Positions 12,155-23,673 of a stretch of 23,760 nucleotides of DNA are shown one piece after another; position 1 is the first letter of the stretch; every line of letters begins with the position of its first letter. Under the pieces are notes generated by a model. It was not told the origin of the DNA, ran no database searches, and saw only the letters and a program-made list of their open reading frames with translations. The translations under genes were made by a program, and so were the position numbers. This stretch comes from a virus: positions 1-23,760 of the IMG/VR virus record IMGVR_UViG_3300009093_000121. One strand, given 5' to 3'.

Positions 12155-13138
12155 TTAGAAAAGCGTGCTCGACAGCTTGAAGCCGGTACGCGGGCTGGGA
12201 ACCATGATGTTCGAGCCCAGGATGTACTGGCCGGCGGAGTCGATCGAGTTCGCGCCCAGCGGCTTGAACCCGGTCCACCCGAACTGGAACAACGGCACCT
12301 TGCTCATCCACCACTTGATGTAGTTGGTGTTCATGCCGTAGATCTGGCCGATCGGGTTCGCCCCGCTCGGGAGATAACGGTCGATGACTACATCGGCGCC
12401 GTTGAACTTGAAGTTCTGGAAGCCGACGTTGGCGAGGTCGTTGTCCGTGTTGGCGTACCGCATCTGCGGCTGCGTCCCCTGCCAGATCAGGTTCCAGCCG
12501 TTCTGGGTCACCGGGATCAGGTCGGGGTGGTCGCTACCCCAGCAGGCGCTGCCGTACGCCGTGTTGAGTTGCGCCATGGTGAAGGTGGTGAGCGTGGCCT
12601 GGTAGGCGTTGAGCCCGCCGGGGACGCCGTTGGGTTGCCCGTTGATATCGGTACGGGTCTGACCGCCCACGGTGGGGTAGTTGGTCCCGTCGTCGTACCA
12701 CTCGGCAAACCCGTTCAGGTACTTCTGCCGTGCGCCCTGGCCCGCCAGATACATGTTCACGGCCAGGAGTTCCGCCATGCGCAAAGACGCATTGAGGAAC
12801 TTCATCTCCACCTGGTTGAACATGGCCTCGTCGCCATCGTCGTTCATGGCGTCGTAGCCGACCAGGGTGATGTTCACCCACGCGACCTTCATGTCCACGT
12901 AGATGGCCGCGTCGGTCGTCACGAAGTCGATGTTCATCGCTCCGCCACGGCCCATAAAGTCGGCGTTGAGCTTGCCAACAATTATGTTTTGCCGTACGCG
13001 CGAATTTCCGGTGAAGTCTTGCCGATTTTGCGATTCGAGGCGAGAGAACACCGGCGAGCTTGCGTACACCACGTCAACGCTCTCCGGCGCGATTTTCTGG
13101 TTGACGTAGGAATCGAGTTCCGTTAATTGAAGCGCCAT
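12155..13138 (-). CDS. Major capsid protein (HK97-type, inferred)
   Basis: Start ATG 13138 has a strong GGGAGGT Shine-Dalgarno six bases upstream. The 327-aa length, its place between a putative scaffold and connector genes, and the sequence layout fit a capsid subunit. An N-terminal arm contains 'YASSPVFSRLESQ'. An 'FVTTDAAIYVDMKVAWVNI' strand region and a long helix with 'EMKFLNASLRMAELLAVNMYLAG' (residues about 111-133) resemble the spine helix of the P-domain. The C-terminal third has 'IPVTQNGWNLIWQ' and 'FQNFKFNGADVVIDRYLP' (residues 208-256), as in the last domain of many capsid proteins. That third is partly repeated in the 204-aa protein encoded at 19173-19787. No maturation protease gene is evident, so cleavage cannot be predicted. 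HK97 fold is inferred from layout and general knowledge of tailed phages. Confidence 0.85.
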   Translation of the reverse strand: MALQLTELDSYVNQKIAPESVDVVYASSPVFSRLESQNRQDFTGNSRVRQNIIVGKLNADFMGRGGAMNIDFVTTDAAIYVDMKVAWVNITLVGYDAMNDDGDEAMFNQVEMKFLNASLRMAELLAVNMYLAGQGARQKYLNGFAEWYDDGTNYPTVGGQTRTDINGQPNGVPGGLNAYQATLTTFTMAQLNTAYGSACWGSDHPDLIPVTQNGWNLIWQGTQPQMRYANTDNDLANVGFQNFKFNGADVVIDRYLPSGANPIGQIYGMNTNYIKWWMSKVPLFQFGWTGFKPLGANSIDSAGQYILGSNIMVPSPRTGFKLSSTLF

Positions 13139-13269: not shown

Positions 13270-14211
13270 TTACTCGGCCGCGCCCGCCAGAGCCGCTTCC
13301 CGCCGCTCCTGCATGTGCTGCTGACCGATCCCATGTCCCAGGCGCGGGCGGAAGGTTTCGCCTTCCTTCGGCTTGCGCCGGCTCATCGCGCGGGACTCGG
13401 CAAATCCGATTGCGTTGCCACCTTTGCCGTCCACCGGGTTCGAGCGGGTGCCGCTGGCGGCCATGGCGAGTCGCTTGCCTTCCTCGATCCCGGCCTGCTT
13501 GGCCTGTTCCAGTTCGGCGGCCTTGTCGGCGGCCGACTTCTCATCCAGGCGGGTCTTGTTCATCCGCTGGTAGGCATCGTTGGCGTCCCAAACTTTGTTT
13601 TCCTGCATGTAGTTGAACACGGCCTCCCGGTCCAACTCTTCGCCAAACAGGCGGCGATGCTCGGCGGCCTTCCGCTCCAGAGCCGAGTACACGTTCTGGA
13701 ATCGCAGGGCGGTGTTGTTGTTGACGTTGGCCACCAACTTGTAGACTTCGCCGGGTTCTTCGCCTTCCTTGGTGGCGGCGCTCACCGCCTTGGCCAGACG
13801 GGCTTCCAGTTCGGTGCTGCTGACCAGATTCATTTCCTTGGCCACCTCGCGGGCGACCAGCTTGATCTCTTCGGGCGTCATGTCGGTATCGCTCCTTGCT
13901 TCCAGTTCAATGATGCGAGCCTGGGCTTCTTCCAGCGCCACGGCCGTCGCATGCTGCTGCCGCGTCATGCCGTGTTCCTTGTCCCAGTGCTCAGCCTTCC
14001 AGCCTTCCCACTGCTTCAGTCCATTGACGGCCAGCATGGGGTCTTTGGCCAGGCCGGGGTTGATCTCCGCCAGCTTGGGCCGGATGGTGGTTTCAAACAT
14101 CTCTCCCGACTCCGCGTAATTGCGCAGCACGGGGTATTTGGCGGCTAACTGGCTGAGTTGGCCGCGATCGGTTTCTTCGTTGAGCTTGTCGAGTAGGTCT
14201 TGAAAGGCCAT
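13270..14211 (-). CDS. Putative capsid scaffolding protein (313 aa)
   Basis: Encoded directly upstream of the major capsid gene, with an AGGAAG Shine-Dalgarno before ATG 14211. The product is highly charged and predominantly helical. Residues about 90-145 (LEEAQARIIELEARSD, then EVAKEMNLVSSTELEARLAKAV) and 225-250 (DEKSAADKAAELEQAKQAG) look like coiled-coil segments. The C-terminus is basic (SRRKPKEGE...). Internal scaffolds of tailed phages show this composition and gene position, and a basic helical C-terminus often contacts the capsid protein. No protease motif is visible. The function is inferred from composition and synteny, and an alternative is another internal head protein. Confidence 0.65.
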   Translation of the reverse strand: MAFQDLLDKLNEETDRGQLSQLAAKYPVLRNYAESGEMFETTIRPKLAEINPGLAKDPMLAVNGLKQWEGWKAEHWDKEHGMTRQQHATAVALEEAQARIIELEARSDTDMTPEEIKLVAREVAKEMNLVSSTELEARLAKAVSAATKEGEEPGEVYKLVANVNNNTALRFQNVYSALERKAAEHRRLFGEELDREAVFNYMQENKVWDANDAYQRMNKTRLDEKSAADKAAELEQAKQAGIEEGKRLAMAASGTRSNPVDGKGGNAIGFAESRAMSRRKPKEGETFRPRLGHGIGQQHMQERREAALAGAAE

Positions 14212-15728: not shown

Positions 15729-16214
15729 GTGCGCCTCCTGTTCCTCGACGTGGACGGCGTGCTGGTCCTCGACTGGGACTGGCGGACCCATCTACATGGC
15801 AATGCGCGGCCGGACCCGGCCTGCATCGCCGCCCTCAACCACATCATCGACTCGACCGGATGCTACGTGGTGGTGAGCAGTAGCTGGCGCAAGGAGCGCA
15901 GCCTCCAGGAACTCTGCCAGATCATCAACGGCCAGTTCGGGGTTCACGGACAAGTGATCGGCCGCACCGAAGTCCTCACCGTCCACCGCGAGATCGCCGG
16001 CTGCGCCACCCCGGTGCAGGAGGCCGCCGGACGCGGCGAAGAGATCCTGAAGTGGCTGCAAGCCTACGCCCGCAAACACTCGGTCCACTCCTTTGCCATC
16101 CTGGACGACAGCGCCGACGTGGGGGAACTCGACCGCTTCCTGGTGCGGCCGGATTCGGCAGTCGGCCTCACCATGCAGGACGCCGCACAGGCGGTCGCCA
16201 TTCTCAACCGCTAA
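15729..16214 (+). CDS. HAD-fold phosphatase-like protein (HAD/Swiss-Army-Knife RNA-repair type)
   Basis: Starts at GTG 15729, two bases after the upstream stop, with a weak CAGGA site. The 161-aa product has all core HAD motifs: FLDVDGVL at residues 5-12 (nucleophile D7, acid/base D9), VVSSSWRK at 48-55 (motif II Ser, followed by W-R), and AILDDSADV at 123-131 (motif IV Asp pair D126/D127). GRGEEILKWL at 101-110 is also typical. The overall pattern is that of the small HAD domains named after 'Swiss Army Knife' RNA-repair proteins and of stand-alone phage homologues. These are presumed to act on phosphorylated ends of nucleic acid or on nucleotides. The substrate here is not known. It is the last gene of the plus-strand cassette, and its TAA overlaps the stop of the convergent 74-aa gene. 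Confidence 0.85.
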   Translation: MRLLFLDVDGVLVLDWDWRTHLHGNARPDPACIAALNHIIDSTGCYVVVSSSWRKERSLQELCQIINGQFGVHGQVIGRTEVLTVHREIAGCATPVQEAAGRGEEILKWLQAYARKHSVHSFAILDDSADVGELDRFLVRPDSAVGLTMQDAAQAVAILNR

Positions 16215-16886: not shown

Positions 16887-18770
16887 CTAAATTGGGCTCC
16901 CATTGCGCTGGCTCCGCGTCTGCCGCTCCTGCCTGCCCTTGGGTTGCTGGCCGAAACCCTGCTTGTGTTCTTCCTGGATGCGCTTGCTCTCGACTTCCCA
17001 GCTTGCCGGGAACTGCGTCTGCTCGTAGAGGCCCTCACCCGACAGGTACCCGGCCTTGGCCATAGTGAAGGCTTCCACCTTCTTCTGCTGGCGGGCCGCC
17101 CCGTGCTGCGTGCCCTGGCGCACGGTCACGCTGAACCGCTTCCAGTGGTCTTCCTTCTGCCCCGCGTGCGGGGACAGCATCTTGGGAGAGTAGTCGAAGT
17201 CCTGCATGGTCCAGCCGTCGTCTCCCAGATACTTGAGACGCTCATCCAGGGTGGCGTACTGGATGATGTTCGACACGGTCTGGCGGGCCGCCTGCTTCAG
17301 GGCCGCCTCGATGTAGCGGCTTTCCAGGCGCATGGGTCCGCTCATGGTGTCGCGCATCTGCTCCTGAGCCTCGCCGCTCGGCAACTGCTTCTTGCGGGCC
17401 AACTGCTGCATGTCGATGACGGGCTGCCGCTGGCGGATCCGGTCCACCAGGTACTTGGCCCAGAACTCCACCTGTCCCGGCAAGTTGGGCGCCGTCATCT
17501 CGCGCACGCTGCTTGCGTCGGCCACCGGGTTGACCAGTAACTTCTGCCCTGGCTTGCCGGGGATAAAGGCATCGAATACAGCCTCGGGCACATGGCCCCG
17601 CTTGAACACCCAAGTGCCATTGAGCGCCCGCATCACAGCCTCGTCCACACCCACTCCGATCCGGTTCATGGACTGGACTAGCGGGACCAGATCGCGGTAG
17701 GCGCTGATGCCTCCGGGGTTCCACACGCACGGGTTCAACTGGAGCAGGGTGAAGGGGAACATGCCGTGCCAGTAGGGGCTCGGCCCATCGTACATGACGC
17801 GGGATCCGGCGAAGATCACAAGGCGCTTGCGGGGATAGAGCGGCCAGTTGGGAGGCACGCGGTAGTGGAAGTTGTGGAGTTCCACCGGAAGATCGGGGTG
17901 CTTGACCAGCATCTCCCGGCCCGTCTCATTGGTCTCCGGATCGTCAATGTACCACTCCTGCAACTCGATCACGGGGAACGGGGAGTAGGAGGCCGAAGCC
18001 GATCCCTTGCGCGGACCGAGGCGCATGGCGGCCCGCCTCCGCAGGCTCGGACCCATGGCGTTCCAGGTGTACTCGGGGATGGCGTCCGGCCGCGCGTACT
18101 GGTCGCCGCTCATGCTCTTGGACATGGCGGTGGCCTCGCGCTGGAGGCCGATACATTTGGCGGGGCCGAAGCGCTGCTGGAAATAGCTGAGCGGTTTGTA
18201 GGCCCGGTAGCAGACCGCTCCCGATTCCTGGATGTCGCTGTTCATTCCGACCGGGATCACGAAGTCCAGGCCGTGAGAGGAAAACTGGAAGTTGTTGGAG
18301 TCGCTCGCCGGGTTGGGCTCAAAGGCGGTGCTCTTGAGAATGCCGGAGCCGAACAGGGAGTGGTCGATCCAACTGACCAGCGTGAGATCGAGATCGTTCT
18401 CGTACCACAGGCAGCGCATGTACTTCTGGATGACTTCGTCCTGCTGCTTGTAGGCTTTGACGCGGCTGGTGACATCCATCATGGGCTGGATATCAGAGAG
18501 CGCGGCCAGCTTGTTGGTGCGGGCCTCGCTGAGGAAGTTATCGTAGAACCGGGAGCGGTACTGCGGCCGATTCTTATTCCAGAAGTTGCCGGAGAGGAAA
18601 TCGATATATCTCTCCGCCTCCTGGAACTCGTTGTACGACCGCAGTTCCTCCTGGCCCTGGCGCATGAGGTTGTCCCGCATGTTCACCATACGACGAGGGT
18701 AGGCATCGGAAATGTCCATGGATCCGGACTTTCGTTCGATCGGGGCTCGGGGTACGGCGAAAGCGGCCAT
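16887..18770 (-). CDS. Portal protein (head-tail connector, DNA gate)
   Basis: The 627-aa product fits a portal in size and in position between the terminase and scaffold/capsid genes. Characteristic parts are an N-terminal helical region ('RYIDFLSGNFWNKNRPQYRS', residues about 53-72), then 'LAALSDIQPMMDV', a beta-rich wing ('PVIELQEWYIDDPE'), and the 'SPYWHGMFPFTLLQLNP' segment. This is followed by 'GGISAYRDLVPLVQSMNRI', the usual 'G...DL.PLQ..~N' clip/stem element. The C-terminal tail is Gln- and charge-rich (QRNGSPI at the end). It forms the ring through which DNA is packaged and ejected and on which the neck proteins dock. The start at 18770 has only a distant GAGG. An internal Met at codon 18 is an alternative. 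PEYTWNAM at residues 231-238 is encoded by DNA identical to a stretch in the gene at 19173-19787. Confidence 0.85.
   Translation of the reverse strand: MAAFAVPRAPIERKSGSMDISDAYPRRMVNMRDNLMRQGQEELRSYNEFQEAERYIDFLSGNFWNKNRPQYRSRFYDNFLSEARTNKLAALSDIQPMMDVTSRVKAYKQQDEVIQKYMRCLWYENDLDLTLVSWIDHSLFGSGILKSTAFEPNPASDSNNFQFSSHGLDFVIPVGMNSDIQESGAVCYRAYKPLSYFQQRFGPAKCIGLQREATAMSKSMSGDQYARPDAIPEYTWNAMGPSLRRRAAMRLGPRKGSASASYSPFPVIELQEWYIDDPETNETGREMLVKHPDLPVELHNFHYRVPPNWPLYPRKRLVIFAGSRVMYDGPSPYWHGMFPFTLLQLNPCVWNPGGISAYRDLVPLVQSMNRIGVGVDEAVMRALNGTWVFKRGHVPEAVFDAFIPGKPGQKLLVNPVADASSVREMTAPNLPGQVEFWAKYLVDRIRQRQPVIDMQQLARKKQLPSGEAQEQMRDTMSGPMRLESRYIEAALKQAARQTVSNIIQYATLDERLKYLGDDGWTMQDFDYSPKMLSPHAGQKEDHWKRFSVTVRQGTQHGAARQQKKVEAFTMAKAGYLSGEGLYEQTQFPASWEVESKRIQEEHKQGFGQQPKGRQERQTRSQRNGSPI
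18054..18079. repeat. 26-bp exact repeat, copy 1 (inside portal gene)
   Basis: These 26 bases are identical to 19248-19273. In both copies the minus-strand frame encodes PEYTWNAM, although the proteins are otherwise unrelated to the eye. Flanking bases differ at once on both sides. Such an exact match in two genes of different families suggests recent copying, or a motif under strong constraint. Confidence 0.85.
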
Positions 18771-18775
18771 TGCGT

Positions 18776-19183
18776 TTAGACCTCGCTACCCGGCAGGCCC
18801 ATCGTGTTCTTCACGGTGCGGCCGTCGCCGGCGACTTCAAAATTGTTGGGCATCTCCGAAGGGAGAGCCAACCCGTTGCGCTTGCAGAGTTCCTTCTGCT
18901 GACTCCAGGTTTCGACCAGCACCGGGGACTTCTTGCCCGTCACCGGGTCCTTGTCCCATACCCAGTGGCTGCCATCACGAGCGTTGCCGCCCTCTTTGGT
19001 CCGGTCCAGATACTTGGCGCTGATGGGTCCGACCCAGATGGGGGCCACCGGGAACAGGGCGACCTCCAGGGGTTGGCCGCACTCCCCGCAGAGTTGCACG
19101 GGTTCATCGCGCGGGATAGTGCCGCTGGCCACCTCCTGCTGATGCGGGCAGGCAGCATTGCGGCAGACATACTCACGAGCCAT
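18776..19183 (-). CDS. Zinc-ribbon hypothetical protein (135 aa)
   Basis: The ATG at 19183 has a GGAG Shine-Dalgarno and overlaps the end of the upstream gene by 11 nt. Residues 7-35 hold 'CRNAACPHQQ' and 'CGECGQP', giving C7, C12, C32 and C35, a compact zinc ribbon. The rest contains 'GSHWVWDKDPVTGKKSPVLVETWSQ' in two strands and an 'ELCKRNGLALPSEMPNNFEVAGDG' segment. Such short ribbon proteins are common between terminase and portal genes in phages, with no known role. Nucleic-acid or protein binding is possible. The portal gene starts five nt after its TAA. Confidence 0.7.
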   Translation of the reverse strand: MAREYVCRNAACPHQQEVASGTIPRDEPVQLCGECGQPLEVALFPVAPIWVGPISAKYLDRTKEGGNARDGSHWVWDKDPVTGKKSPVLVETWSQQKELCKRNGLALPSEMPNNFEVAGDGRTVKNTMGLPGSEV

Positions 19184-19787
19184 AAGACTCCTCGTACATT
19201 TCCCAGTCCACGTCTTCCGCGATCGACTCCTGGCGCTTTTTGGGGGACATGGCGTTCCAGGTGTACTCGGGGACCAAGCCTGGGAAATAGACCACCGCGT
19301 TGAATTTGGGGGAGTGCAAGTATTCCGGGTTTACCAGGACCATCTCCCCAGCGTGCAGGGTTTGGTCTACCACCACCTCGCACCCCATAAACTGGAACGT
19401 CTGGTACCCGCGCTTGGACAGTTCCGATCCCGCGTTTCGGTAATGCGAACGTTCGGGCAGGGAACCCCACAGCAAACCCCATAGTTGCTGGGTGACCACC
19501 ATGTAGCGCGGGGCGTAGCGGCCGAACGTACAGTGGTTGATGGCCTCCTGGATGCGAGACAGTTGCCACCCATTGACGTAGAACCCTCGCGCGTCCGGAG
19601 GCAGGGGAACCGGGCGATCCATAAACACCACGTCCGGCGCTTCCTTCCCGAAAGCGGCTTGGCGGTAGGCTTCATCCAGCGCGGCCGGATCGGGCACGTC
19701 CGTATTGGGTAACGCCTTCGCCGCCGCCGGGGCCGCCAGCGCAGCGGCAATCGTCGCGAAGAACTTACGCCTGCTCAGATTCGGCAT
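19173..19787 (-). CDS. Truncated major-capsid-like paralogue with Tat-type leader (204 aa)
   Basis: I choose ATG 19787 over one 24 codons upstream because it has a near-perfect GGGGAGGAG Shine-Dalgarno. The first 27 residues look like a twin-arginine signal: SRRKFF at 5-10, an Ala-rich hydrophobic core, and an AKA site near residue 25. Residues about 76-147 align with residues 188-259 of the major capsid protein. Shared marks are 'VTQ..W.L.W.G' (98-108), 'G(Y/F)Q.F.F.G...VV.D..L..G' (127-147) and spaced A, G and P. By hand I count about 24 identities in about 75 columns. The first two-thirds of a capsid protein is missing, so it cannot form a normal capsomer. It could be a minor head protein, a vestige or an exported protein. 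The Tat call is uncertain: Ala-rich starts also occur by chance in GC-rich DNA. Confidence 0.7.
   Translation of the reverse strand: MPNLSRRKFFATIAAALAAPAAAKALPNTDVPDPAALDEAYRQAAFGKEAPDVVFMDRPVPLPPDARGFYVNGWQLSRIQEAINHCTFGRYAPRYMVVTQQLWGLLWGSLPERSHYRNAGSELSKRGYQTFQFMGCEVVVDQTLHAGEMVLVNPEYLHSPKFNAVVYFPGLVPEYTWNAMSPKKRQESIAEDVDWEMYEESYGS
19248..19273. repeat. 26-bp exact repeat, copy 2 (inside capsid-paralogue gene)
   Basis: Identical to 18054-18079 and in the same coding frame, giving PEYTWNAM at residues 173-180 of the 204-aa protein. Here it is followed by SPKKRQES, in the portal by GPSLRRRA, so a weak similarity of basic residues extends past the exact match. Confidence 0.85.
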
Positions 19788-20223
19788 GCGACTCCTCCCC
19801 TTCTCCGGCCGCGTCCCCTTCGGGCGCCACGGGTTCCGGCTCCGCTTCCTGTCCCACATTGGACACAGGCTGCGGCTCGTTCACGGTTTCTACTTTGGGC
19901 TCCTCCGCCAGAGATTGCTCCTCTTCCATGGGGACCGGCACGGGCAGGCCCAGTGCCGCGCCTATCTTCCTGCTCAGCCGCTCGCTTGCGTCATTGAGCA
20001 ACTCCTCCAACTGTCCGGCCGCCTGGGGATCCTCCAGCACGGCCACCCCAATCTCGATCGGCTCGTTCATTGTGCCGCTGCCGCCTGGCTCGTGGCAGTA
20101 CAGGCTGCTCGACACCACCACCCCGTCGCTTGCAAAGGCGTGGCAGAAGATCTTCACGTCCGCGAACTCCATGGGGTTCTGGTTGTACTCGGCTACCATC
20201 AGGTTGATCTGTTCGAGGTTCAC
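19765..20223 (-). CDS. Hypothetical protein with acidic C-terminal tail (152 aa)
   Basis: Begins at GTG 20223, overlapping the upstream TGA as GTGA, with GGAAGGAG seven bases upstream. The first 90 residues mix beta and helical segments ('FADVKIFCHAFASDGVVV', 'IGVAVLEDPQAAGQLEELL', 'ASERLSRKIGAALGLPVP'). From about residue 95 the chain is Glu/Pro/Ala-rich and strongly acidic to the end. The tail probably stays unfolded. No family recognised. Its 3' end overlaps the Shine-Dalgarno and start of the capsid-paralogue gene, suggesting co-translation. Confidence 0.65.
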   Translation of the reverse strand: MNLEQINLMVAEYNQNPMEFADVKIFCHAFASDGVVVSSSLYCHEPGGSGTMNEPIEIGVAVLEDPQAAGQLEELLNDASERLSRKIGAALGLPVPVPMEEEQSLAEEPKVETVNEPQPVSNVGQEAEPEPVAPEGDAAGEGEESHAESEQA

Positions 20224-20852
20224 GACTGGGCTCCTTCCGTTACGGCGTCGGGTTCCGGAGCAGGCAACTCCTGGGCCTGCGGCTCGGCCAGCGGGCTTTC
20301 CAGCATGGCGCGGAGAATCTCGGCCAGCTTGGTCCCGGTGTCAAAGTCCTCATCCAGGATGCTCTTGACCGACTGGTAATCCTTCTCGGTCATGCGGACG
20401 AAGCGGGGTACGCCAGCGACCAGATACCCCAGCGCGTCGTTATCGAACACGCTGTCCACGATCTCCTGGATGATCTCGCGGGTTTCCCGGCCCTGGATCT
20501 TGGCTGGCTCCTCATAGAGAGCCATGTACACCGGATCGATCGTCACCGGGAAGACGTTTTTCCCCTCGCTGATTCCGGTGGACTGAGAGATCACTTCCAC
20601 CAGGTCCTCGCCGCATGTGGGTTCTTCCATGCCGGTGGCCTCGCGGATCCGCGCGATCTCTTCGGCGCTGATCATGAGTCCGCCTTCGGCCAGCTTGAGG
20701 AGCAGGGTTAGCGCCATGCCGCCCACTTTTTGCGAATCGGTGAGCGTGTCATCGGTTACCATGCCCAGCAAGGTGGGGACGATGTTAGCCGGGAGAGGCA
20801 ACTCCAGGCTGTAAATTTTCTCTACGATTGTCGGTTTAGGTTTGCTCGCCAT
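20220..20852 (-). CDS. Hypothetical helical protein (210 aa)
   Basis: Start ATG 20852 has an AAGGTG Shine-Dalgarno and lies 13 nt after a motif shared with the gap at 11013-11032. The product is mostly alpha-helical and acidic. Features are 'LTDSQKVGGMALTLLLKLAEGG' near residues 37-58, 'ISAEEIARIREATGMEE' and a 'REIIQEIVDSVFDNDALGYLVAG' segment. It ends with a Pro/Glu-rich tail. Nothing indicates catalysis. Its conserved-looking place between terminase and portal suggests a packaging or assembly accessory, but I recognise no family. Confidence 0.65.
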   Translation of the reverse strand: MASKPKPTIVEKIYSLELPLPANIVPTLLGMVTDDTLTDSQKVGGMALTLLLKLAEGGLMISAEEIARIREATGMEEPTCGEDLVEVISQSTGISEGKNVFPVTIDPVYMALYEEPAKIQGRETREIIQEIVDSVFDNDALGYLVAGVPRFVRMTEKDYQSVKSILDEDFDTGTKLAEILRAMLESPLAEPQAQELPAPEPDAVTEGAQS

Positions 20853-20973: not shown

Positions 20974-23673
20974 CTATAGCATATCGTACGGAACGTCCTG
21001 TATCGCGGACCCTTTGGTGTGCTCGTTGACCAGATCGAAACTGGTCCCCCGGTAGCGGTGGGTCTCCCCGCCGAAGACGTCCCTCACTTGGTCCATGATG
21101 GGCCGCTCGTCGTTGCTTTTGAGTTGGGGACTGGGGTCCGGCATCTCCAGGTGCTTGGCGGTGAAGCGGATCGAGCCGCAGCCTTCGTACGGGCAGCGGT
21201 ACTCGGTCTCGGGGTTAGCGGATCCCCAGGTATGTTCGGGGTCTTTGGAACAGGTCATGGCCCACTTAGCGGGCTCGTCCTGCTCGATCTGGCTCGGCAC
21301 GCGCACCCGGCCCGTCTCGTCGCAGTCGGTCTCGTGCGAGCAGTAGAGCGAGATCATCCCGGCCATGAGTTCGTCGTCGTTGCAGCCCTCGGTGGCGCCG
21401 AAGCTGCGCGAGGCCGCTTCGTCCTTCTCGTACACCGTGGTCTCTTCCGCGAAGTTGCGGCTGCGGATGATCCAGGAGTGGGACAGGAGGTAGTCCACGG
21501 CCGTCTGGTGCAGGTAGGCTTTGGTGTTGACCTTGGTCCACCAGTGCCACTTCTGCCCCAGCGGGTGGACGCTATCCAGGTGCTTCCAGCGGAAGACGTT
21601 GGGGTAATTGTATTTGTAGATCAGGTCGTCGCCCGTGGTCTGGTAGGTGTTGTACTCGACGCACATCAACGCTTCGTTGTACCAGCGGCCCAGCACGTTG
21701 GCGTAGAAGGCCAACTCCTTGGGCTTGGTATGGTTGTCGCGCCACACCGCCACCTGTTCGTCGGGCGCTCCCCGGCGGCCCACCTTGTTGACGAAGATGA
21801 CGGAGTAGTCCTCGCCAATTCCCTCGCTGACGTCCACCCCGATGCAGTACTCGGCTCCCGGCTCGGGTTCCTTCCAGACCCATAGCGGAGTTTCATCGTG
21901 GCGGTGGTCCACGTTGCAACCCTTGATGTAGCAGCGGCCCTTGTTGCGGGCGTCGGCCCCGTGGATCTCGCTGCTCTCCCGATAGAGCTTGCCTTTTTTG
22001 AGCGGGCACTCCTCCACCGTGGCCTGCATCCACTCGCGGCAAGCGTCGTTGAACAGGACGTAGCCGCTGGCCTGCCAGCACTCCTCAGCGGTGACGGCAA
22101 GTTCCTGCTTAAATTGCCTTACGGCCTTCTGCCCCTGCTCCTCGGCCTGCTCGCGCTTATCCTGGTGCCAGTAGAGTTGCTCGTCGGTAAGCGCGAGCGG
22201 CATCAGCTTGCCCGCGTTACACTCCGGGCATAGGGTATCGGCTACGCTCTCTCCGAACAGGGTGGCCTTGCGGTGCCGGCCGCAGTTTCCGCACTTCACC
22301 CATTCCTTCTTCACCCGCTCCTGGAGGGCGAACTCGGCGTGCGGGAGTTTCCAGCCCTGTGGAGGAGCCAGCACGCGCGTGGTCTCAAAGAAACTGGGCA
22401 GGAACAGGGGATACCAGCGCGGCCACTTGCCCTGGTCCATGCGGCGCTCGAACGCTCTCCACATGCGGTGCGCGGCCGATCCGGCGCCGCGCCCGGTGGA
22501 TTCCATAAAGCCGAAGACCTCCGGCAGGTCCGCCATGGAGTTCCCCAGATCCTCGTTGACGATCGCCTCCAGGTCCTCCTCAAAGAAGTCGGTGTACTCG
22601 GAGACGTGGGCCGCGTCGATCGGCAGGCCCTGGCCGACGCCAGAGTACTGGTTGCTCCACTGCACGAACAGCTTGCTGTCGAGTCCAGGGTGGCGCAGGC
22701 GCTGCGTCTCGTCCGGGTTGTCGAACCACAGGCCGAACTTCTCCTCGCGGCGGGCCGTCATGGGTTTGAGCCACCACGGCATGCGGTCGTAGATGTGAGC
22801 CATCAGGGAGAACAGGTACGAGGAGTGAGCCTGATCTACCGAGACCACAATCGCGCGGGTGTTGGGGAAGAACATCGCACGCCACGCCAGCATGGCTTCT
22901 ATCAGAGTGGAACAATTGTGGGTGACCAACCCTTCCGCCACAAAGTTTCCGGTGGTGGTCTCCACGTCCACCATCGACCTGATTCCCACAGCGATGACGG
23001 AAACCACTCCGCTCGAACCGCCTATACCTGGAGCGTCCGCCCGATTGACCCGCATACCCGGCCGCAATCTCGCGGTGGTGATCCAGTGTCCGCCAGAGCG
23101 GAACGGGTGGTCGTCCGTAGCCAGGAGAGTGGTCCCGTCATCGAAAGAGATGCGGAAGGCTTCCTTGAAAACCACCCAGGACTTCACGACTGAGGCGGTG
23201 CAAGGCCGCCCGGTAGATTCGTCCATCGAGAATAACTGGTCGCCGGGTTTCAGGTCACCGATCCTCACCCATCGGATATCAGTCGTAAGCACCTTGGTGT
23301 CAGGATCGAGAGCGCCAAGCTGGCGGCCTTTGACGATAATAATCTTCTGGGCGCGGCCCTTCTCCTTCAGATCGTAGTAGCACTGGAGGATGAGGTGCTG
23401 GGCCTCCCACAGACTGAACAGCTTGTCCTTCTTGCCCTTGGTGGTGATCCAGAAGTAGTTCTTCGCCGCGTAGGTGAAGTCGTCCTGGCAGTCGGTGGCC
23501 TGCTCGATGATGGCCTTCCGGTCGGCCTCAGAGCACAGGCTCCACTTCTCCAGGGACGGCATCGCGTCCCACTCGTCCTCGTCGATTTTGTATTTGAGGG
23601 GGAGGTCCTTGTCCAGGTAGTCGATCATCAACTGGACGCCGGGGTCTCTCTGCCATCCAAGGTCTACGGGCAT
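20974..23673 (-). CDS. terL: Terminase large subunit (packaging ATPase/nuclease), intein-containing
   Basis: The 899-aa precursor, with a GGAG Shine-Dalgarno before ATG 23673, drives DNA packaging at the portal. ATPase motifs: a deviant Walker A, KGRQLG-CST, split between residues 120 and 254 by an intein (121-253); a Walker B/catalytic pair in AAHVSEYTDF (E359); and a coupling motif FMESTGRGAG (389-397). Nuclease (RNase-H-like) motifs: GVDVSEG with D614, VEYNTYQ with E673, and NDDELMAG with D766/D767. Two zinc-binding insertions are visible: C461-x2-C464...C482-x2-C485 between the two domains, and C808...C827...C832 near the C-terminus. After splicing the protein would be 766 aa, longer than many TerL proteins because of the insertions. 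The gene upstream ends 4 nt before the ATG. Confidence 0.95.
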   Translation of the reverse strand: MPVDLGWQRDPGVQLMIDYLDKDLPLKYKIDEDEWDAMPSLEKWSLCSEADRKAIIEQATDCQDDFTYAAKNYFWITTKGKKDKLFSLWEAQHLILQCYYDLKEKGRAQKIIIVKGRQLGALDPDTKVLTTDIRWVRIGDLKPGDQLFSMDESTGRPCTASVVKSWVVFKEAFRISFDDGTTLLATDDHPFRSGGHWITTARLRPGMRVNRADAPGIGGSSGVVSVIAVGIRSMVDVETTTGNFVAEGLVTHNCSTLIEAMLAWRAMFFPNTRAIVVSVDQAHSSYLFSLMAHIYDRMPWWLKPMTARREEKFGLWFDNPDETQRLRHPGLDSKLFVQWSNQYSGVGQGLPIDAAHVSEYTDFFEEDLEAIVNEDLGNSMADLPEVFGFMESTGRGAGSAAHRMWRAFERRMDQGKWPRWYPLFLPSFFETTRVLAPPQGWKLPHAEFALQERVKKEWVKCGNCGRHRKATLFGESVADTLCPECNAGKLMPLALTDEQLYWHQDKREQAEEQGQKAVRQFKQELAVTAEECWQASGYVLFNDACREWMQATVEECPLKKGKLYRESSEIHGADARNKGRCYIKGCNVDHRHDETPLWVWKEPEPGAEYCIGVDVSEGIGEDYSVIFVNKVGRRGAPDEQVAVWRDNHTKPKELAFYANVLGRWYNEALMCVEYNTYQTTGDDLIYKYNYPNVFRWKHLDSVHPLGQKWHWWTKVNTKAYLHQTAVDYLLSHSWIIRSRNFAEETTVYEKDEAASRSFGATEGCNDDELMAGMISLYCSHETDCDETGRVRVPSQIEQDEPAKWAMTCSKDPEHTWGSANPETEYRCPYEGCGSIRFTAKHLEMPDPSPQLKSNDERPIMDQVRDVFGGETHRYRGTSFDLVNEHTKGSAIQDVPYDML
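22915..23313 (-). other. Mini-intein in terL, Ala1 type (133 aa, no homing endonuclease)
   Basis: Residues 121-253 of the TerL precursor form an in-frame insertion in the P-loop: exteins join as KGRQLG and CSTLIEAM. The insertion has Hint-domain blocks: block A 'ALDPDTKVLTTD', block B 'TDDHPF' (Thr 66, His 69 in intein numbering), block F 'MVDVETTTGNFVAEGLVTHN' with penultimate His132 and terminal Asn133, and Cys at +1. At 133 residues there is no room for a LAGLIDADG or HNH endonuclease. Position 1 is Ala instead of Cys or Ser, so the standard first N-S shift is impossible. Ala1 inteins are known as class 2 and class 3. The class 3 WCT set is not present (F at B:12, D at F:4), so a class 2-like direct attack by Cys+1 is the better guess. 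Confidence 0.9.

What the first reader, a model, noticed from the sequence alone, without database searches (positions are those of the whole stretch)
19173..19787. Capsid-protein paralogue, truncated and with a Tat-like leader, between terminase and portal genes
Residues about 76-147 align with residues 188-259 of the window's own major capsid protein: 'VTQ..W.L.W.G', 'Q.F.F.G...VV.D..L..G', and about 24 identities over about 75 columns by hand. The N-terminal two-thirds of a capsid protein is missing and replaced by a start resembling a twin-arginine signal (SRRKFF then an Ala-rich core, AKA). A partial capsid fold on a possibly exported phage protein is unexpected. It could be a minor capsid or vertex protein, a decoy acting in the periplasm, or a domain captured for another use.
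Basis: partly seen in the sequence, partly recalled or inferred. Interest (0 to 1): 0.78.

Follow-up and report, generated by a model that had tools for sequence, protein, structure and literature searches.

The report
Export-type leader fused to capsid piece
A soil phage carries a small accessory gene joining an export-type leader to a diverged piece of its capsid protein; related phages carry similar leaders joined to other pieces of their own head proteins, a recurring design I found no description of and whose function is unproven.

Summary
Residues 74-158 of the 204-aa protein align with residues 186-275 of the window's major capsid protein (MCP; blastp E 3e-12). A curated capsid model agrees independently (NF033394, E 2.5e-5). 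The MCP helix-strand motif occurs a second time at residues 35-56, and the tail (169-187) resembles the portal protein. The first 26 residues look like a twin-arginine leader, but curated Tat models do not score it.

The gene sits in an accessory slot between two conserved head genes, which abut in 30 of 49 related modules. Seven of the modules with an insertion carry a gene with a Tat-like leader there. Across 17,059 ORFs of related phages, Tat-like leaders and short pieces of MCP, portal or terminase co-occur far more than chance allows (9 of 85 versus 14 of 16,974, p about 1e-15; shuffled decoys 0). The piece differs between phages.

The likely explanation is a chimeric accessory protein, held at or sent through the inner membrane, that uses a captured virion-protein piece to contact head components. 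That mechanism is inferred. Young chimeric ORFs without a head-related role are nearly as likely. No matching literature was found in the open-access library searched.

The parts
19173..19787 (-). The chimeric gene, 204 aa (P0001)
   Evidence: ORF with ATG and strong RBS, codon-position GC like its neighbours
19792..19798 (-). Ribosome-binding site ggaggag
   Evidence: read directly in the sequence
19710..19787 (-). Twin-arginine-type leader, aa 1-26 (MPNLSRRKFFATIAAALAAPAAAKAL)
   Evidence: motif and hydrophobic core by eye and script; curated Tat models do not score it
19620..19685 (-). First, weak copy of the MCP 189-211 motif, aa 35-56
   Evidence: MCP HMM 7-8 bits
19314..19568 (-). Capsid-like segment, aa 74-158, matching MCP 186-275
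   Evidence: blastp E 3e-12; hhalign; NF033394; shuffle test
19227..19283 (-). Portal-like tail, aa 169-187 (PGLVPEYTWNAMSPKKRQE)
   Evidence: portal matches in the window and many relatives; shuffle p 0.001
19248..19273 (-). 26-bp stretch identical to the window's portal gene (18054-18079)
12155..13138 (-). Major capsid protein, HK97 fold
   Evidence: phrog_9953 E 2e-20; AlphaFold pLDDT 76 and PDB fold matches to phage capsids E 1e-11
16887..18770 (-). Portal protein
   Evidence: phrog_156 E 7e-5; 48-55% identical to syntenic relatives
18776..19183 (-). Conserved zinc-ribbon-like head-module gene, downstream edge of the slot
   Evidence: alignment A2 with 4 invariant Cys; overlaps the chimeric gene by 11 bp
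19765..20223 (-). Second accessory gene of the slot (acidic, 152 aa)
   Evidence: ORF; no clear relative found in the syntenic phages examined
20220..20852 (-). Conserved head-module gene ('G20'), upstream edge of the slot
   Evidence: relatives in the syntenic phages
20974..23673 (-). Terminase large subunit with an intein
   Evidence: terminase phrogs and a HINT domain; relatives are continuous across the insert

Best explanation
The gene is a chimeric accessory ('moron'-type) gene in an insertion slot of the phage's head operon. Shown here: an N-terminal twin-arginine-type leader is joined to a diverged piece of an HK97-type capsid protein (central part, with its helix-strand motif present twice) and a short portal-like tail. 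Related phages carry genes of the same design with other pieces: MCP residues 5-36, 20-48, 165-211 or 279-307; portal 405-436; terminase Walker A or the ESTA/G motif. Inferred: the leader takes the product to the inner membrane, anchored or exported by Tat, and the retained piece acts as a subunit mimic that binds the oligomer it came from (capsomer, portal or terminase). That would tether or poison head assembly, most usefully that of a rival phage sharing the host. Coupled translation with the conserved zinc-ribbon gene would express it late, with the head genes.
For: Architecture. Recurrence: 9 of 85 Tat-like ORFs carry a piece of MCP, portal or terminase at 6 bits or more, against 14 of 16,974 other ORFs and 0 for shuffled Tat ORFs (Fisher p 1e-15, or 7e-14 after merging the near-identical L051/L053 pair). 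An earlier pass gave p 3e-12, with no co-occurrence for three control head proteins. L051t, L053t and L284t were found by the MCP model alone and proved to have such leaders. Slot census: the flanking genes abut within 33 bp in 30 of 49 modules, and 7 modules with an insertion carry a Tat-like gene there (with the leader genes). In the window, L125, L132, L174 and L180 that gene abuts or overlaps the zinc-ribbon gene. Leaders are alike across phages while the bodies differ (L132t and L174t share 14 of 21 leader residues).
Against: Export is not shown; of about 12 leaders only L067t passes curated Tat models. Several pieces are short (20-40 aa) with weak individual scores. L051t and L053t show little constraint (dN/dS about 0.75 on 14 changes, against 0.055 for their MCP). 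No partner binding is known. Export through Tat would remove the product from the cytoplasm, where heads assemble, so the mechanism needs membrane retention.
Confidence: 0.38

Rival explanations
1. Young chimeric ORFs without a head-related function. The leader gene is a non-essential gene in the operon, so fragments of neighbouring head genes that land there by illegitimate recombination are tolerated and drift.
For: Sporadic occurrence in the slot (7 of 49 modules); different piece in each phage; dN/dS about 0.75 for L051t/L053t; raw fragments without leaders also occur, such as the 88%-identical portal piece in L087:16072-16395.
Against: Leader-plus-piece also occurs at other places (after the MCP in L051/L053 and L284, before terminase in L157), so one tolerant locus does not explain the association. 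Reading frames, start sites and leaders are kept although the bodies are diverged. The capsid piece of the window is far from any recent copy.
Confidence: 0.37
2. The window protein is simply an old, degraded capsid paralogue with a hydrophobic N-terminus. The shorter pieces in other phages are chance matches.
For: Only the window's capsid segment is strong on its own (42-47 bits); most others score 6-16 bits.
Against: Decoys give 4 hits at 6 bits where real ORFs give 23, and none of the decoys of Tat ORFs reaches it. The L125t N-terminal piece alone reaches E about 1e-6 with 58-65% identity over 31 residues. The L053t piece resembles its own lineage's MCP.
Confidence: 0.13
3. Minor capsid, vertex or decoration protein of the virion.
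For: Capsid-derived segment and late-operon position.
Against: MCP residues 1-185, including the spine helix (103-130 in the model), are missing. Syntenic relatives lack any homologue of the whole protein. A membrane-type leader is odd for a virion part.
Confidence: 0.07
4. Decoy that occupies host defence sensors of capsid, portal or terminase proteins.
For: Bacterial sensors of MCP exist (CapRel, PMC9712102), and the pieces come from proteins that such sensors can read.
Against: The known MCP sensor is cytoplasmic, while the leader points to the membrane. No sensor of this host is known.
Confidence: 0.05

Closest known systems
HK97-fold major capsid proteins (NF033394 capsid_maj_Podo; phrog_9953)
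   Same: Residues 74-158 align with the central part of the family.
   Different: N-terminal 185 residues and the C-terminal strands are absent; leader and portal-like tail added; score far below the family cut-off (23.7 against 80 bits).
Tat-exported proteins (TIGR01409, PF10518)
   Same: SRRxFF motif, uncharged hydrophobic core, AKA before the mature part.
   Different: Curated models do not score the window's leader; only L067t passes. No cofactor or folded enzyme domain typical of Tat cargo.
Phage moron genes, for example the HK97 gp15 superinfection-exclusion moron (cited in PMC11364771)
   Same: Accessory gene inserted between conserved late genes that otherwise abut.
   Different: Built from pieces of head proteins; no sequence relation tested.
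Tai tail-assembly-interference proteins (PMC11364771)
   Same: Proteins carried by phages and satellites, often upstream of the packaging module, that block virion assembly of other phages; a model for what this gene might do.
   Different: Tai acts on tails, and I saw no report of Tai proteins made of captured virion pieces with a leader; sequence relation not tested.

Membership tests
Major capsid protein (HK97 fold) | Sequence homology over the central capsid region | tested here: met
Major capsid protein (HK97 fold) | Full-length fold with N-arm, E-loop, spine helix and P-domain | tested here: not met
   MCP 1-185 and the C-terminus are absent
Major capsid protein (HK97 fold) | Predicted structure of the shared segment | tested here: inconclusive
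   model pLDDT 43.6, no PDB match; secondary-structure order agrees but the alignment contained MCPs
Tat substrate | Twin-arginine motif followed by an uncharged hydrophobic core | tested here: met
   SRRKFF, 15 uncharged residues, AKA
Tat substrate | Score on curated Tat-signal models (TIGR01409, PF10518) | tested here: not met
   no hit for the window protein; L067t passes both, L180t scores below cut-off
Tat substrate | Export by TatABC | not testable with these tools
   needs a reporter assay; SignalP and TatP were not available
Moron-type accessory gene | Present as an insertion between genes that abut in relatives | tested here: met
   30 of 49 modules have the flanking genes within 33 bp
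Moron-type accessory gene | Own promoter and terminator | not tested
   overlap with the next gene suggests co-translation instead
Virion assembly interference protein (Tai-like role) | Blocks assembly of other phages | not testable with these tools
   needs expression and phage assays

The most novel reading that the evidence does not exclude
A class of phage-encoded membrane-targeted 'virion mimics'. Phages fuse a Tat-type leader to captured pieces of their own capsid, portal, terminase or decoration proteins and use them at the inner membrane to control or sabotage head assembly, most likely of competing phages. The piece is swapped as the targets change.
Probability: 0.22. Interest if true: 0.86.

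Novelty: new variant of a known kind. Interest (0 to 1): 0.6.

Why it matters
If the association reflects function, phages repeatedly turn pieces of their own head proteins into leader-bearing accessory proteins. That would be a ready-made source of dominant-negative or tethering peptides against capsid, portal and packaging motor, and a design usable to find phage-phage competition factors in sequence data alone. If it does not, it is a clear case of gene birth by fusing a leader to fragments of neighbouring genes. Either way it gives testable predictions for poorly known, probably acidobacterial, soil phages.

Tried and rejected
Direct relatives of the whole protein: none in viral contigs by its own peptides, none in cultured phages. 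In 396 genomes of the host phylum, two hits were MCPs and a third, over residues 2-92, was not followed up. Structure route: the model was too poor to use. PDB sequence search with the MCP profile: no match. Homing hypothesis (pieces mark intron or intein insertion sites): considered because these phages are rich in both; only some pieces span such sites (MCP 20-48, the terminase P-loop), others do not, so dropped. Recent duplication of the own MCP: not supported by the tree, which puts the segment on a very long, poorly placed branch. Literature searches for phage Tat leaders, capsid fragments or decoys gave nothing on such genes; the library lacks most subscription journals and preprints.

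Full report
WHAT IS THERE. The window is a 23.8-kb fragment of a virus record that carries the late genes of a tailed phage, nearly all on the minus strand. Its gene order is terminase (20974-23673), a conserved 210-aa gene (20220-20852, 'G20'), an acidic 152-aa gene (19765-20223), the gene of the finding (19173-19787), a zinc-ribbon-like gene (18776-19183), portal (16887-18770), scaffold-position gene (13270-14211) and MCP (12155-13138). Portal relatives occur in Tunturiibacter phages and MCP relatives in an acidobacterial genome assembly, so the host is probably an acidobacterium.

CHECKING THE OBSERVATION. The 204-aa protein aligns with the window's MCP over residues 74-158 / 186-275, at E 3e-12 by blastp and 95.9% probability by profile comparison. 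An outside curated model of podophage capsid proteins hits the same segment (NF033394, E 2.5e-5). Against 1000 shuffles of its own mature part the MCP score is 42 bits versus a maximum of 5.4.

The MCP motif around residues 189-211 appears a second, weaker time at residues 35-56. The tail, residues 169-187 (PGLVPEYTWNAMSPKKRQE), resembles the portal protein, with a 26-bp exact DNA identity to the window's own portal gene and similar matches to portals of many relatives. An alignment can also lay this tail onto the MCP C-terminus, so its portal origin is likely but not certain.

RELATIVES. MCP, terminase and portal searches brought about 270 loci. None that I examined holds a homologue of the whole protein. 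Syntenic relatives keep terminase, G20, zinc-ribbon gene, portal, scaffold and MCP in the same order. Of 49 distinct modules with both G20 and zinc-ribbon gene, 30 have the two genes within 33 bp of each other; the rest carry insertions. The finding is therefore a gene in an accessory insertion slot. Seven of the modules with an insertion (window, L125, L132, L172, L174, L180, L018) have a gene with a Tat-like leader in the slot. In five of them (window, L125, L132, L174, L180) it overlaps or abuts the start of the zinc-ribbon gene.

THE PATTERN. The mature parts of these leader genes differ, yet most resemble pieces of head proteins. L125t: MCP 5-36 (58-65% identity over 31 residues, E about 1e-6) and possibly MCP 137-154. 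L174t: MCP 20-48. L018t: portal 405-436 and MCP 281-307. L132t: terminase ESTA/G motif region. L157t (upstream of terminase): terminase Walker A. L067t: weak similarity to the decoration-like protein encoded just after the MCP in its relatives, and to Phage_cement_2. L051t and L053t (MCP 165-211) and L284t (MCP 279-295) were found only through the MCP model and turned out to begin with such leaders. L180t, L172t and L228t have no recognised piece.

STATISTICS. Every assigned MCP, portal or terminase piece put to the shuffle test reached its floor (p 0.001), while models of three other head-module proteins gave nothing at that level for any leader ORF. Over 17,059 non-family ORFs, 23 carry a piece at 6 bits or more against 4 in shuffled decoys. 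Nine of the 85 Tat-like ORFs do, against 14 of 16,974 others and none of the decoys of Tat ORFs; Fisher p 1e-15, or 7e-14 after merging the near-identical L051/L053 pair. A first pass with fewer loci gave p 3e-12, with zero for control models. Caveats: the hypothesis was formed on part of the same data, related phages are not fully independent, and the leader criterion is a motif rule whose hydrophobicity cut-off I loosened slightly (1.4 to 1.3) between the two passes, which brought in L132t.

LEADER. The window leader has SRRKFF, a 15-residue uncharged stretch and AKA. TIGR01409 and PF10518 do not score it. L067t passes both cut-offs when searched at the record level, and L180t scores below cut-off. 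Export is therefore a reading of the motif, not a result.

SELECTION. L051t against L053t gives dN/dS about 0.75 on 14 differences, against 0.055 for their MCP: weak or mixed constraint. The window segment sits on a long branch and cannot be placed near the own MCP, so it is an old or fast-evolving piece and not a fresh copy.

STRUCTURE. The MCP model is good (pLDDT 76) and matches HK97-fold capsids. The model of the finding is poor (pLDDT 43.6), and its fold search is meaningless. Its helix-strand order over residues 76-157 follows that of MCP 188-269, but the input alignment contained MCPs, so this is weak support.

HOW IT MIGHT WORK. Shown: leader motif, capsid piece, slot, overlap with the next late gene, recurrence. 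Inferred: membrane targeting, and binding to the oligomer of origin by subunit mimicry, with tethering or poisoning of head assembly. Assembly interference by phage-encoded proteins is known for tails (Tai, PMC11364771), and host sensors of capsid proteins exist (PMC9712102); I saw nothing built like this in either. The main rival, young chimeric ORFs without such a role, is about as likely.

VERDICT. Observation confirmed and extended; interpretation partly supported. The recurrent leader-plus-head-piece design is the interesting result; its function is open.

Noticed in passing
window 20974-23673 (minus), residues about 122-253 of the terminase: Small intein of about 130 aa inserted at the terminase P-loop (KGRQLG / CST); appears to start with Ala and ends HN-C. 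Related phages lack it there, but some carry inserts at other terminase positions.
   Followed up: partly
L098, L178, L166: The MCP gene is interrupted at different points (after residues about 22, 50 and 94), suggesting several introns or insertions in this phage group; L098 terminase also has a roughly 1-kb insert.
   Followed up: no
L087:16072-16395 (minus), also in L092, L094, L095: ORF upstream of terminase carrying an 88%-identical piece of the phage's own portal (residues 382-437), without a leader: a fresh fragment capture.
   Followed up: partly
L132:3662-4084; L013:1682-2176; L113:2971-3501; L135:2582-3097; L231:5431-5670; L196:10989-11123: Small ORFs without leader that also contain MCP-like stretches (such as GFTGFK, or MCP 89-125 at 16.8 bits), several of them in the same slot.
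   Followed up: partly
L228:2677-3075, L229:1934-2341, L237:3269-3676: Conserved Tat-like leader gene with a four-cysteine, zinc-ribbon-like body directly upstream of terminase; dN/dS about 0.41 between L228 and L229.
   Followed up: partly
L088:11222-12337, L090:10077-10943, L098:7110-7916: HNH or GIY-YIG endonuclease-like genes (by eye) between the zinc-ribbon gene and the portal in several relatives.
   Followed up: no
window 15729-16214 (plus): ORF on the opposite strand with a HAD-phosphatase-like start (LLFLDVDGVL), the only plausible plus-strand gene seen; recognised by eye.
   Followed up: no
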